From Candidatus Cloacimonadota bacterium (lineage in GTDB: Bacteria; Cloacimonadota; Cloacimonadia; Cloacimonadales; TCS61): 5,206 bases of DNA. The DNA lies in NCBI GenBank assembly GCA_030667725.1, contig DAOUVH010000108.1, positions 1 to 5,206 of the forward strand, written 5' to 3'. A program made the translations under genes and the position numbers. Shown piece after piece: positions 1 through 2,979 of this stretch. A model generated the notes under the pieces. That model saw only the letters and a program-made list of their open reading frames with translations, searched no databases and was not told where the DNA came from. Position 1 is the stretch's first letter, and each line of letters begins with the position of its first letter.

Positions 1-1
1 A

Positions 2-76
2 GGTGTAGAAGGTTTTTTAGGTTTATTCTTAATGGCATACTTTACGAATGCATTTTCAAGAAAAGTTCTGAGATGA
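2..76 (+). CDS. C-terminal end of a probable ion-channel-like membrane protein (5' end outside window)
   Basis: The second reading frame is open from the window edge to a TGA at 74-76 and encodes 24 residues: GVEGFLGLFLMAYFTNAF followed by SRKVLR. A hydrophobic, glycine-containing segment followed by a short basic tail looks like the last transmembrane helix and cytoplasmic end of a two-helix potassium-channel-type (Ion_trans_2) protein, where an 'EGFLG.FLMA.F' inner helix is common. That family call rests on resemblance of a short tail only. The stop overlaps the start of the following transposase gene as ATGA, which argues that this is a real gene end. Frame 1 is also open here and in frame with the transposase, so an N-terminal extension of that gene is the main alternative, but its translation is rich in Arg, Cys and Phe and looks non-coding. 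Confidence 0.5.
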   Translation, partial: GVEGFLGLFLMAYFTNAFSRKVLR

Positions 77-654
77 TTAATTCTCGTAAAACAATCCGTT
101 TACCGAGTTATGATTACACGGCAAACGGTGCATATTTCATAACAATATGTACGCATAAAAGAGAACAATCTCTTGGTGAAATAATAAATGTTGAAATGAA
201 ATTATCCAAAATTGGAGAAATCGTTTCAGAAAAATGGTTTGATATTCCCAATCACCACAATGTTAAATTGGGAGAATTCGTCGTAATGCCCAATCACATC
301 CACGGTATCATTTGGATTACATCAAATGAAACTGTAGCATCCCCCGGGATGACCGATGAGAGAGAAAGGGTTTGCCAGGGCAAACCCCGACTGGAAGAAC
401 GAGTTTGCCAGGGCAAACTGGAAGAGATATATTCGAGGAAATTCGGAGAGCCCCAATCCGGTTCGTTATCAATGATAATCAACCATTTCAAAGGATCAGT
501 TAAACGTTGGTGCAATAAGAATGACCATAAATGGTTCGGGTGGCAAAGAAATTATTATGAACATATTATTCGAAATAATAAAGATCTATTCAATACGACA
601 GAATATATTAAAAAGAATCCAATAAATTGGAGTAACGATGAATATAAAGCATAA
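73..654 (+). CDS. REP-associated tyrosine transposase (RAYT), Y1/IS200-like HUH family
   Basis: This is a single-domain Y1 transposase of 193 residues, the family that cuts and joins single-stranded DNA at hairpins and, in RAYTs, is linked to REP palindromes. Visible signatures are the N-terminal 'RKTIRLPSYDYTANGAYFIT' (5-24), the HUH metal-binding motif in MPNHIHG (72-78, H75 and H77), a SLSMIINHFKGSVKR helix (131-145), and WQRNYYEHIIRN (157-168) carrying the catalytic tyrosine (Y161 or Y162). The C-terminal 'YIKKNPINW' (178-186) is also family-typical. All key residues are present, so it may be active. Residues about 86-120 form a variable linker containing VCQGK twice, encoded by two palindromes. 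The start at 73 fits family N-termini, but the ribosome-binding site is weak, consistent with coupling to the upstream gene. It has no visible terminal repeats and overlaps neighbours at both ends, so it looks like a resident single-copy RAYT rather than a recent insertion. Confidence 0.93.
   Translation: MINSRKTIRLPSYDYTANGAYFITICTHKREQSLGEIINVEMKLSKIGEIVSEKWFDIPNHHNVKLGEFVVMPNHIHGIIWITSNETVASPGMTDERERVCQGKPRLEERVCQGKLEEIYSRKFGEPQSGSLSMIINHFKGSVKRWCNKNDHKWFGWQRNYYEHIIRNNKDLFNTTEYIKKNPINWSNDEYKA
338..351. repeat. Short palindrome 1 inside the transposase gene
   Basis: CATCCC (338-343) and GGGATG (346-351) are perfect 6-base inverted repeats separated by CC. GTAG (334-337) lies directly 5' of the left arm. 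In enterobacterial REP elements a GTAG-type tetranucleotide at the hairpin foot guides the cognate RAYT, so this layout is suggestive. Arms this short with a 4-base flank could be chance. Confidence 0.45.
368..387. repeat. REP-like palindrome 2 inside the transposase gene
   Basis: GGGTTTGCC (368-376) and GGCAAACCC (379-387) are perfect 9-base inverted repeats separated by AG. As single-stranded DNA or RNA it could form a GC-rich hairpin. On the coding strand it is read as part of ERVCQGKP in the linker between the HUH motif and the catalytic Tyr. Its 16-base core recurs at 403-418. Confidence 0.8.
370..425 (+). repeat. In-frame direct repeat of about 33 bases (VCQGK...LEE units)
   Basis: The 16-base core at 370-385 is repeated exactly at 403-418, an offset of 33 bases, so the reading frame is kept. 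CTGGAAGA follows both copies, at 391-398 and 418-425, with five bases (CCCGA) extra in the first. The protein therefore reads ERVCQGKPRLE then ERVCQGKLEE. This could be a tandem duplication of one palindrome-containing unit, or a double insertion of the same mobile palindrome. Confidence 0.75.
402..419. repeat. REP-like palindrome 3 inside the transposase gene
   Basis: AGTTTGCC (402-409) and GGCAAACT (412-419) are perfect 8-base inverted repeats separated by AG. The core GTTTGCCAGGGCAAAC is identical to that of the palindrome at 368-387. The outermost pair differs (A-T here, G-C there), although both remain paired, which looks like compensating change around a conserved hairpin. Confidence 0.8.
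629..632 (+). promoter_or_regulatory. Ribosome-binding site of trmO within the transposase gene
   Basis: GGAG lies five bases before the ATG at 638. It sits inside the last codons of the upstream transposase gene and supports 638 as the trmO start. No other start codon is close by in that frame. Confidence 0.65.
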
Positions 655-1144
655 TCAAGAAGAAATTGTATTTAACACAATCGGAATTATTCATTCACCA
701 TTCAAAGAAAGGGAAGGAATGCCGATCCAACCAATCGGAGCAAAAGGTGTGAAAGGTCAAATAGTGATATTTCCTGAATTTAAAGATGGTCTTAAAGATC
801 TGGACGGATTTTCTCATATCATTTTACTTTTCAATTTCCATTTATCAACCAATTATAAGCTCTTAGTTAAACCGTTCATGGAAGATACAATAAGAGGTGT
901 GTTTGCCACTCGAGCTCCACGTCGTCCCAACCAGATTGGAATGTCAATCGTTAAACTGGAAAGTGTTGAAGATAATATTCTGCATATTTCTAATGTTGAC
1001 ATCGTAGACGGAACACCAATTTTAGACATTAAGCCATATATTAAAAGAGTTGATTGCGTTGAAAGTGAAAAAATTGGCTGGTTAGAAAAGAAAGCAGAAA
1101 AATTTGATAAAAAAATTTCGGATAATAGGTTTAGCGGAAAATAA
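638..1144 (+). CDS. trmO: tRNA (N6-threonylcarbamoyladenosine(37)-N6)-methyltransferase TrmO/TsaA, short form
   Basis: TrmO-family enzymes use S-adenosylmethionine to methylate t6A at position 37 of certain tRNAs, giving m6t6A and tuning decoding next to the anticodon in the cytoplasm. The 168-residue product shows the whole UPF0066 beta-barrel signature: IGIIHSPFKE (15-24), a QP loop (31-32), DGFSHIILLFNFH (56-68), GVFATRAPRRPNQIGMS (87-103) and DGTPILDIKPYIKRVD (124-139). It ends in a lysine-rich tail. It is shorter than the E. coli enzyme (about 235 residues), lacking most of the C-terminal domain, as do many archaeal and deep-branching bacterial homologues. The gene begins inside the end of the transposase gene and its TAA shares one base with the mutL ATG. 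The family call is firm; exact tRNA substrate is inferred, since short members are less studied. Confidence 0.93.
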   Translation: MNIKHNQEEIVFNTIGIIHSPFKEREGMPIQPIGAKGVKGQIVIFPEFKDGLKDLDGFSHIILLFNFHLSTNYKLLVKPFMEDTIRGVFATRAPRRPNQIGMSIVKLESVEDNILHISNVDIVDGTPILDIKPYIKRVDCVESEKIGWLEKKAEKFDKKISDNRFSGK

Positions 1145-2979
1145 TGGGAAGAATTAAAGTTTTATCAGAAGAAGTTGCAAATAGAATTGCAGCAGGTGAA
1201 GTAATCGAAAGACCGGTTTCTGTAGTTAAAGAACTGGTAGAGAATTCCATTGATGCCCATTCATCACAAATAACAGTGCATATAGAAAGTGGTGGCAAGA
1301 AATTGATGCGCGTTATTGATAACGGAAGAGGAATGAGTGAAGATGATGCCTTGCAAGCTTTCGAGCGTCATGCAACCAGCAAGATCAAGACAGCAACAGA
1401 TATCTTCAATATATCAACACTCGGTTTTCGTGGAGAAGCACTTCCAAGTATTGCTTCGGTGAGCCAACTCATTCTCATAACCAAAGATACAGAAAGTGAT
1501 ACAGCTTCCAGAGTTGAATTCAGGGGTGGAAAGCTCACAGATTTTTCTAAAACTTCTGCAAACAAAGGAACAACAATCACAGTAAGAAATTTATTCAGCA
1601 ATATTCCTGCACGAAGAAAATTTTTGAAATCTGATCCAGTTGAATTTAAACATATTCTTAATTATTTGCATTATCAGTCTATTCTCTATCCTCAAATTCA
1701 CTTCCGCTTTTTAGCTGATGGAAAGGAAAAGCTCAATTATCCAGCAGTTGCAGAAATGAAAGCAAGAATGTCCACAATATTTGGAAGCGATTTCCTTAAA
1801 CGAGACTTGATCGAAGTATCCGAGAAAGGGCATGAAATTGAGCTTTCAGGATTTATAAGTGGTTTGAACGAGGAGAAGGAAGGATTTGCGGATTACAGAT
1901 ACCTTTTTGTGAACGGAAGGTATATTCGTGATAAAATTGTTTTACATAGCTTAAAATCGGCATATGGTCCATTCATAAAGAAACTTCGTATATTTCAGCA
2001 AGGCAAAACACCACCTTATATTTTGTTCCTGAATGTTGACCCCCAGCAGGTGGATTTTAATGTTCATCCTGCAAAAATGGAAATTCGTTTCAGGGATCCC
2101 GGAAAAGTTCATACTTTTATAAAGTTAACTATCGAGAAATTGCTTCTACAATATGAGGATGATAAATTCAAGCAGATCAAAAACAAAATAAGCTCTACAT
2201 TCCAACCTGGCAAAACTACCGATGTTGAAACCAGAATATTTTCTAATAAGATGGAGAAGAAACATTTCAATCAGGTTAAGAAGGAATTGAAGGATATCTA
2301 TCAACCCGATCTTTTCAGAAAAAAGACAATTGATGATATCCAGATCGAAAAGAATTTTACAGAAAACAGAACCGATATGTTCCTCAGACCTGAGGAAGAT
2401 GTAATAAATCCCTGGCAACTTCATCAAAGCTACATTTTTGTTCAAGTAGAAGAAGGATTGATGATAATTGATCAGCATGCTGCACACGAACGAATAATTT
2501 ATGAGAAAATATTACACAGAATTCATGGAGCTCCTGCTCAAACACAGAAATTACTGTTTCCAATAGTTATAGATCTTCCACCGCATCTCACTAATACCAT
2601 TCCTGAATTAATTTCAGAAAATATTGAAGTATTCAACAAAATTGGATTTTCTATAAAAACTTTCAGTGGTGATTCCATAGTAATTGATGAGATTCCTATT
2701 GAACTTGAAGATTGGGATGGCGGAGATATCTTCATTGACATTATAAAACAATTAGAAGATGAATTTGAACAAACCGAAGATTTCAGAGACAGCCTTTCAA
2801 AGTCAGTTGCCTGTAAAGCTGCGATTAAAGCAGGAAGAAAAATGAACAGGAAGGAGATGCTGGCACTTATTAATGATCTATTTGCCTGCGAAGTTCCTTA
2901 TTTCTGTCCTCATGGTAGACCGCTCATAATCAAGATGACGATACCTGAATTTGAAAAAAAATTCAAACGAACAACATGA
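1144..2979 (+). CDS. mutL: DNA mismatch repair protein MutL, endonuclease type
   Basis: MutL couples mismatch recognition by MutS to strand nicking and excision. The 611-residue product is full length. The N-terminal GHKL ATPase has IAAGEVIERP (15-24), ELVENSIDA (30-38, with E30 as likely general base and N34 binding Mg), DNGRGM (59-64), RHATSKI (75-81) and LGFRGEAL (93-100). The transducer domain has NIPARRKFL (153-161) and VDFNVHPAKMEIRF (303-316). A polar, Lys/Glu-rich linker spans roughly 340-420. The C-terminal domain carries the metal-dependent nicking motif DQHA..E....E (443-454), ACKAAIKAG (556-564) and CPHGRP (588-593), which supply Zn-site residues. QKLLFP (468-473) fits the QxLxxP-type sliding-clamp-binding motif. 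All catalytic elements are intact, so this is a nicking MutL of the kind found in bacteria without MutH. The start matches family N-termini, and TAATG overlap implies coupling to trmO. Confidence 0.98.
   Translation: MGRIKVLSEEVANRIAAGEVIERPVSVVKELVENSIDAHSSQITVHIESGGKKLMRVIDNGRGMSEDDALQAFERHATSKIKTATDIFNISTLGFRGEALPSIASVSQLILITKDTESDTASRVEFRGGKLTDFSKTSANKGTTITVRNLFSNIPARRKFLKSDPVEFKHILNYLHYQSILYPQIHFRFLADGKEKLNYPAVAEMKARMSTIFGSDFLKRDLIEVSEKGHEIELSGFISGLNEEKEGFADYRYLFVNGRYIRDKIVLHSLKSAYGPFIKKLRIFQQGKTPPYILFLNVDPQQVDFNVHPAKMEIRFRDPGKVHTFIKLTIEKLLLQYEDDKFKQIKNKISSTFQPGKTTDVETRIFSNKMEKKHFNQVKKELKDIYQPDLFRKKTIDDIQIEKNFTENRTDMFLRPEEDVINPWQLHQSYIFVQVEEGLMIIDQHAAHERIIYEKILHRIHGAPAQTQKLLFPIVIDLPPHLTNTIPELISENIEVFNKIGFSIKTFSGDSIVIDEIPIELEDWDGGDIFIDIIKQLEDEFEQTEDFRDSLSKSVACKAAIKAGRKMNRKEMLALINDLFACEVPYFCPHGRPLIIKMTIPEFEKKFKRTT

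What the first reader, a model, noticed from the sequence alone, without database searches (positions are those of the whole stretch)
334..425. REP-like palindromes embedded in the coding sequence of a RAYT transposase
Three perfect short inverted repeats (arms of 6, 9 and 8 bases, each with a 2-base spacer) lie within about 80 bases of the variable linker between the HUH motif and the catalytic Tyr. Two share an identical 16-base core. The stretch 341-420 is about 59% GC (47 of 80), against about 23% for 541-620 in the same gene. RAYTs are known to act on REP hairpins, normally outside their own gene. Hairpins inside the ORF, kept in frame, suggest either that a mobile palindrome family inserts into tolerant linkers or that the enzyme can bind its own gene or mRNA.
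Basis: partly seen in the sequence, partly recalled or inferred. Interest (0 to 1): 0.7.

Follow-up and report, generated by a model that had tools for sequence, protein, structure and literature searches.

The report
REP hairpins inside their transposase gene
A bacterial gene for a DNA-hairpin-cutting enzyme carries, within its own coding sequence, worn copies of the kind of DNA hairpin such enzymes act on; this habit of one enzyme subclass was reported in 2018, and the comparisons made here suggest that hairpin and enzyme change together.

Summary
In detail: three perfect inverted repeats lie in the linker of an intact RAYT (TnpAREP) gene, beyond chance even with the protein held fixed. They are most likely in-gene REPs, a published peculiarity of TnpAREP subclass 2.4 (Quentin 2018). 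The first hairpin keeps its GTAG foot (334-337); the second is an inverted partner whose foot reads GTCG, where two relatives keep GTAG; the third fits a 33-base in-frame duplicate. The own genome is not held. In the ortholog genome G101 the core occurs only inside this gene; in G100, in the gene plus one unrelated-looking site. So here it looks like a resident remnant. Family-wide, 57 of 79 near homologues carry a linker palindrome with arms of 9 or more. With arms of 10 or more, linkers hold 4.5 per kb, other ORFs 0.03, the nearest non-coding flanks 2.0-2.4. Double-foot copies are read in both open frames. In 34 such loci palindrome sequence follows RAYT protein similarity; reading frame does not. 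In 25 of 57 loci the same palindrome recurs in the locus (1% between loci). This favours a DNA-level link between enzyme and hairpin over a merely tolerant linker, without proving it. Binding, copying and function are untested.

The parts
73..654 (+). RAYT / TnpAREP gene, 193 aa, subclass 2.4 type (NHIH, WQ, YIKKNP)
   Evidence: PF01797 27.4 bits, cut-off 23; NCBIfam REP_Tyr_transpos 66.8 bits, below its cut-off of 80; best PDB fold 4er8, TnpAREP with a REP hairpin; core dN/dS 0.17 against ortholog L096
304..456 (+). variable linker between HUH and the downstream core; residues 87-107 and 109-127 of the protein predicted with pLDDT under 50
   Evidence: alignment A1; bounds
334..351 (+). REP 1: GTAG foot (334-337) directly followed by hairpin CATCCC-CC-GGGATG (338-351); the ortholog in G101 reads GTAGGGGCATCCC-TT-GGGATGACC
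   Evidence: sequence; alignment A2
368..391 (-). REP 2, inverted: hairpin GGGTTTGCC-AG-GGCAAACCC (368-387) with foot GTCG on the minus strand (CGAC at 388-391); orthologs L096 and L099 also have CGAC, relatives L097 and L098 have CTAC at the foot of their last unit
   Evidence: sequence
396..428 (+). 33-base in-frame duplicate of 363-395 carrying the third palindrome (402-419), without a foot; 23 of 33 bases identical, first 23 bases at 91%
   Evidence: the repeat finder D2, spacing 33
604..621 (+). Y motif YIKKNP with the presumed catalytic Tyr (residue 178)
   Evidence: motif definition in PMC6006769
638..1144 (+). TrmO (tRNA t6A37 methyltransferase), the downstream neighbour that marks the orthologous locus in G101 and G100
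   Evidence: tblastn finds it beside the RAYT gene in L096 (84%) and L099 (88%), and about 1.1 kb further on in L097 (76%)

Best explanation
The palindromes are in-gene REP elements of a TnpAREP/RAYT of subclass 2.4. A GTAG-footed hairpin and an inverted partner (feet outward) sit in the disordered loop between the HUH and Tyr halves. In the window lineage they are old: the first has lost a GGG from its stem, the second foot reads GTCG, and the second unit has been duplicated in frame. Inferred mechanism: RAYTs act on GTAG hairpins in single-stranded DNA; REP copies land or are recopied close to the RAYT gene, and only those in the loop and in an open frame survive. In-gene and gene-side copies are then kept alike by recopying or conversion, and arms are kept complementary, so the gene goes on carrying the hairpin its own product recognises. 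Shown here: location, frames, enrichment, locus-matched copies, paired changes, match with the protein. Inferred: recognition, copying, and any benefit.
For: Prevalence: 57 of 79 homologues have a linker palindrome with arms of 9 or more (56 by the script plus L020, whose linker was cut short); 56 of 78 linkers observed against 0.44 expected from shuffles. Density (arms of 10 or more): linker 53 in 11,724 bp, rest of RAYT 2 in 36,405, 500-bp flanks 43 in 25,569, other ORFs 28 in 949,664, other intergenic 41 in 159,052. DNA rather than peptide: 36 double-foot elements in 34 loci, all 28-29 nt, 24 in frame 0 and 12 in frame 1 (absence from the TAG frame follows from the open reading frame); in those 34 loci palindrome half-sites follow RAYT protein identity (Mantel r 0.47, 0 of 5000), reading frame does not (r 0.05, 812 of 5000). 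Locus-matched copies: 25 of 57 loci, 21 of them within 600 bp of the linker start, against 33 of 3192 between loci. Private paired change: G131 has two exact copies, both at the RAYT locus, while 18 of its 19 other hits share one compensated pair change; in G133 three exact copies at the RAYT locus against ten hits elsewhere of the form with the other pair. Window clade: residue pairs C-K 19, R-E 7, H-E 4, C-N 1 of 31 matches, no C-E or R-K, as stem pairing predicts; no synonymous change in the stem codons against L096, P 0.014. Low-confidence loop. In-gene REPs of subclass 2.4: PMC6006769 section 13.
Against: The window element lacks a double foot and an intact second foot, and no multicopy family is seen in the two ortholog genomes. 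No palindrome with arms of 8 or more and loop up to 4 lies near the gene outside the linker in window 1-1200 (72 bases upstream only), L096 or L099. 22 of 79 homologues have no such linker palindrome, and in the Cloacimonadota-centred set 15 of 32 have none. The Mantel test does not remove shared descent. G138 shows no privacy: its in-gene core has six exact copies on six contigs. The protein-level pairing rests on related sequences found by a restricted expression. Linker against core dS (0.35 against 0.86; p 0.04) is one pair of genes.
Confidence: 0.75

Rival explanations
1. Passive tolerance: REPs insert often next to RAYT genes, and the disordered loop is the only part of the gene where an in-frame insertion survives. 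No use to gene or element.
For: Flanks are also rich: in the first 100 bp 1.82 per kb upstream and 2.03 downstream over all bases, 2.04 and 2.42 over non-coding bases. [quoted passage not shown] REPs occur inside other genes (PMC3733652 section 15). Linker and flank palindromes tend to occur together (p 0.03).
Against: Linker density (4.5 per kb) is about twice that of the nearest non-coding flanks although a linker must also stay in frame. Pairing persists while sequence drifts (296 of 304 inner pairs in 38 foot-defined linker elements). In-gene copies are matched to copies beside the gene.
Confidence: 0.4
2. Autoregulation: the hairpin in the gene or mRNA is an operator bound by RAYT (or an attenuator), limiting its own expression.
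For: Stable fold of 334-425, z -3.8; stem conserved at synonymous sites against L096; match with the protein in 34 loci. RAYT-REP binding is known for E. coli and other TnpAREP (PMC8266576 passages).
Against: No data on binding or expression. The first unit is worn and the second foot is lost, so action of the present enzyme on it is doubtful; changes in GTAG impaired cleavage by S. maltophilia TnpAREP while binding tolerated them.
Confidence: 0.15
3. A peptide-level repeat: RVCQGKP-type peptides are what is selected, and the palindrome is a by-product of codons.
For: The hexapeptide recurs in the window clade: 31 matches in 27 proteins scanned of 120 held.
Against: With the same protein only 3 of 2000 codon redraws reach an arm of 9. 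Elsewhere the same kind of DNA element is read in two frames with unrelated peptides, and frame does not follow protein similarity. The loop is predicted disordered.
Confidence: 0.04
4. A purely local duplication without any link to REPs.
For: The third palindrome fits a 33-base duplicate. In G101 the core is found nowhere else at one mismatch.
Against: The second palindrome is single and at the same place in ortholog L096; GTAG foot at 334; feet at the last unit in L097 and L098.
Confidence: 0.03

Closest known systems
TnpAREP subclass 2.4 (Bertels group 4 in Quentin's table) with REPs inserted in tnpAREP, Quentin et al. 2018, PMC6006769
   Same: NHIH, WQ and Y motif; variable insert between the HUH and Y halves; REP hairpins inside the gene, in frame; scattered over many phyla.
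   Different: Window hairpins are worn: one GTAG foot kept, one GTCG, no double foot, an in-frame duplicate, and no multicopy family in the ortholog genomes. Match to neighbouring copies, frame independence and match to the protein are not in the passages I read; the supplementary figures were not seen.
Head-to-head GTAG dimers (PMC3733652 passages) and REPINs (PMC3116915 seen as a search listing only; REPIN structure recalled)
   Same: Two inverted GTAG hairpins with feet outward; Quentin notes that a double-foot REP could arise by central deletion of an inverted dimer.
   Different: Here inside the transposase gene, low copy.
Intragenic REPs and Rickettsia palindromic elements (PMC3733652 section 15)
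   Same: Palindromes read in frame within genes.
   Different: Those are repeats spread over many unrelated genes; this core is not seen as a repeat family in the 124 genomes searched.
E. coli TnpAREP (PDB 4er8) and IS608/ISDra2 TnpA
   Same: Best fold matches.
   Different: 18% identity or less; 20 of 22 Y1-type ORFs of other classes in the genomes have no palindrome with arms of 9 or more.

Membership tests
TnpAREP subclass 2.4 | HUH motif NH[IFV]H | tested here: met
   NHIH, residues 74-77
TnpAREP subclass 2.4 | WQ motif and Y motif YIxNNP | tested here: met
   WQRNYYE 157-163; YIKKNP 178-183, with K for one N
TnpAREP subclass 2.4 | variable-length insert between HUH and the downstream core | tested here: met
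   alignment A1; low confidence at 87-107 and 109-127 in the model
TnpAREP subclass 2.4 | REP hairpin inserted in the gene in frame | tested here: met
   orthologs; subject to the REP rows below
TnpAREP subclass 2.4 | placement by phylogeny or the authors' own HMM | not tested
   the authors' profiles were not at hand; NCBIfam REP_Tyr_transpos score is below its cut-off
GTAG REP element | GT[AG]G foot next to a hairpin | tested here: inconclusive
   met for 334-351; GTCG at the second; none at the third; CTAC at the last unit in L097 and L098
GTAG REP element | double foot GTAG...CTAC on one palindrome | tested here: not met
   window has only a 5' foot
GTAG REP element | many copies in the genome | not testable with these tools
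   own genome not held; in ortholog genomes not met: G101 1 site, in the gene; G100 2 sites, one in the gene (one mismatch)
GTAG REP element | copies flanking the RAYT gene | tested here: not met
   none with arms of 8 or more and loop up to 4 near the gene in the window, L096 or L099; window holds only 72 bases upstream
Rickettsia-type palindromic element | same palindrome in many unrelated genes | tested here: not met
   124 genomes, 75 sites in all against 67 for the reversed control (summed by hand)
IS200/IS605 insertion sequence | TnpA of class 1.1 with element ends | tested here: not met
   Y motif is YIKKNP, not Y---Q; RAYT-trmO neighbourhood shared with L096 and L099; element ends were not searched for

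The most novel reading that the evidence does not exclude
RAYT genes of this subclass carry their own cognate REP as a built-in copy: in-gene and gene-side hairpins evolve in concert, ahead of or apart from the genome-wide population, and in step with the enzyme, so the gene locus is where new REP types arise and from which enzyme specificity can be read.
Probability: 0.3. Interest if true: 0.68.

Novelty: new member of a known kind. Interest (0 to 1): 0.4.

Why it matters
How a RAYT and its REPs stay matched while both change is not settled by what I read. If the gene carries its own matched hairpin, the cognate substrate of many uncultured RAYTs can be read straight from the gene and tested, and the RAYT locus becomes the place to look for the birth of new REP families. 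For the window alone the result is ordinary: a worn example of a published habit.

Tried and rejected
Rejected: a new mobile family in this genome (not testable; no sign of it in the two ortholog genomes). Three independent insertions (the third palindrome fits a 33-base duplicate). Peptide selection (two frames; codon redraws). My first linker parse missed many ORFs and is superseded. The first Cloacimonadota parse failed on a faulty expression and was redone.

L017 (truncated) was dropped before the 79. The 32 genes include five seen already (L077, L007, L040, L004, L021 again as L082, L083, L084, L085, L206; three of these, L083, L084 and L206, are from outside the Cloacimonadota search) and a tandem pair (L101); three further genes in that call did not show the Y motif and one of them has a palindrome. 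Other ORFs were called simply by length. In one search, 7 of 30 loci gave no parsable ORF, and the identity of L192, one of the two with a palindrome, is unsure. bins count all bases; one search repeats them over non-coding bases, which lowers the advantage of the linker from 2.2-2.5 fold to 1.9-2.2 fold. In one search, palindromes under 40% GC were left out, so its classes differ slightly. In-gene cores were searched genome-wide for 3 genomes only (G131, G138, G141; 16 genomes each); the G133 result comes from the search with the G138 core. One search counts both strands of one palindrome.

Papers: PMC6006769 passages and section 13; PMC3733652 passages and section 15; PMC8266576 passages; other papers only as search listings. 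Paper searches. Supplements were not read.

Full report
What is there. The window carries an intact 193-aa RAYT gene (73-654), then trmO, mutL, miaA, a PpiC/SurA-type isomerase and the start of pdxJ. Of the first 23 protein matches five carry an organism name: four Candidatus Cloacimonadota/Cloacimonetes, one Armatimonadetes. The RAYT has NHIH, WQ and YIKKNP, and its model (mean pLDDT 77) matches E. coli TnpAREP bound to a REP hairpin first (4er8, E 3.6e-06). Against its ortholog in genome G101 (L096) the core has dN/dS 0.17, so the gene is kept.

The observation. All three inverted repeats, the shared 16-base core and the GC figures are as stated. With the protein fixed, 3 of 2000 codon redraws of the linker give an arm of 9 or more and none gives two arms of 8 or more.

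Anatomy. The first hairpin (338-351) sits directly behind GTAG (334-337). In G101 the unit reads GTAGGGGCATCCC-TT-GGGATGACC; the window seems to have lost a GGG, a reading also favoured by the protein P0002, but alignment A2 places no gap there. The second hairpin (368-387) is followed by CGAC, that is GTCG on the minus strand, as in L096 and L099; in L097 and L098 the last unit, with an imperfect stem, ends in CTAC, an intact foot. So the ancestral form is probably a pair of GTAG hairpins with feet outward. The third palindrome lies 33 bases further and fits an in-frame duplicate (23 of 33 bases identical). L096 has one copy of the second unit; L099 has one, with a mismatch, and three repeats of the first. 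trmO follows the RAYT gene in the window, L096 and L099. L099 has a stop inside the gene.

Copies elsewhere. No genome is held for the window. In 124 genomes taken as the phylum of G001, GTTTGCCNNGGCAAAC with up to one mismatch was found in 52, at most 4 sites each, 75 in all against 67 for the reversed control (summed by hand). In G101 the only site is in the RAYT gene; in G100 one is in the gene and one looks unrelated. Here the palindrome looks like a resident, not a spreading repeat.

The family picture. Of the 80 nearest loci in genome contigs, 79 could be parsed; 57 have a linker palindrome with arms of 9 or more (56 by script, plus L020). In shuffles 0.44 of 78 are expected, 56 were seen. 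In the Cloacimonadota-centred set 17 of 32 have one; five of the 32 repeat earlier genes. Of 22 Y1-type ORFs of other classes, 2 have one. The density of palindromes with arms of 10 or more is 4.5 per kb in linkers, 1.7 in 500-bp flanks, 0.26 in other intergenic DNA, 0.055 in the rest of the RAYT and 0.03 in other ORFs; in the nearest 100 non-coding bp it is 2.0 upstream and 2.4 downstream. So the linker is about twice as dense as the nearest flanks: an advantage, but not a large one. Linker and flank palindromes tend to occur together (both 22, linker only 25, flank only 7, neither 25; p 0.03).

DNA, not peptide. 36 double-foot elements in 34 loci are all 28-29 nt; 24 are read in frame 0 and 12 in frame 1. 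None is in the frame where GTAG gives a stop, which an open gene requires; the informative part is that both other frames are used. Elements found by their feet alone have 296 of 304 inner pairs complementary in linkers (38 elements, 30 perfect) and 209 of 224 elsewhere in the loci. In the 34 loci palindrome sequence follows RAYT protein identity (r 0.47, 0 of 5000 permutations), while reading frame does not (r 0.05, 812 of 5000). L080 and L071 show nearly the same palindrome in two frames. Re-insertion and small shifts beside the element are both possible, and shared descent is not removed from this test.

Local matching. In 25 of 57 loci a further copy (up to 2 mismatches in about 20) lies in the same locus, in 21 of them within 600 bp of the linker start, against 33 of 3192 between loci. 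In G131 the in-gene palindrome has two exact copies, both at the RAYT locus, while 18 of the other 19 hits in that genome differ by one base pair changed on both arms. In G133 three exact copies lie within 3.3 kb at the RAYT locus, while ten hits elsewhere (six exact, four with one mismatch) belong to the form with the other pair. In G141 the four hits (two exact, two with 1-2 mismatches) all lie at the RAYT locus; the same core is exact at two places in G142, and four hits with two mismatches fall in three further genomes. G138 is different: six exact copies on six contigs. Over 16 genomes, counts of GTAGGGN16-17CCCTAC range from 0 to 47 against 0 to 7 for the control; G139 and the two genomes without any match do not exceed it. 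Private, paired changes at the RAYT locus suggest concerted evolution of in-gene and gene-side copies; two genomes are too few to generalise.

Window clade. In 27 proteins scanned the hexapeptide that covers the second stem pairs C with K (19), R with E (7), H with E (4) and C with N (1), never C with E or R with K. This is what exchanging a T-A for a C-G stem pair predicts; codons are inferred for most, DNA was seen only for the genomes. The stem codons have no synonymous change against L096 although 51% of the synonymous sites in the core differ (P 0.014). Both are suggestive; related sequences were not weighted.

What is known. Quentin et al. [quoted passage not shown] Di Nocera and colleagues' paper of 2013 (PMC3733652; author name recalled) describes GTAG families and REPs in other genes. 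So the finding is a member of a known kind. I did not see the match to protein, the frame independence or the locus-private paired changes in the parts read; supplementary figures were not seen, so I do not claim that they are unpublished.

Verdict. Most likely an old in-gene REP pair, with one duplicate, in a subclass 2.4 RAYT. The family-wide comparison makes passive tolerance alone less likely but does not exclude it. Whether the enzyme acts on its own gene is open.

Noticed in passing
L099 (G100), orthologous locus: RAYT ortholog with an in-frame TAG after the HUH motif and three repeats of the first hairpin unit: gene decay beside unit expansion.
   Followed up: partly
L096 (G101), just upstream of the RAYT gene: A looser inverted repeat, CCTGCCA ... 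TGGCAGG with a 12-base loop (seen by eye), below the thresholds used; perhaps a terminator.
   Followed up: no
L101 (G062 C54): Two tandem RAYT genes with the same double-foot palindrome in both linkers.
   Followed up: no
L052, L043, L110, L062, L019, P0001, P0007: Linkers with serial repeats of half or whole palindrome units, all in frame: expansion by local duplication seems common.
   Followed up: no
L070 linker: A 44-base perfect palindrome (arms 22) read in frame inside a RAYT.
   Followed up: no
L191 (G140 C195): A Y1 transposase of another class (DHVH, YIHANP) with a 33-base palindrome (arms 16) about 46 residues after HUH; in-gene palindromes may not be confined to subclass 2.4.
   Followed up: no
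P0075 and P0108 N-termini: Palindrome-type peptides (GTACRAPT, GRDAIHRV) near the start of the RAYT protein rather than in the linker.
   Followed up: no
G138, G133, G130, G140: The same 20-base palindrome GGGCGACGCATGCGTCGCCC occurs exactly in four genomes: REP types shared between genomes.
   Followed up: partly
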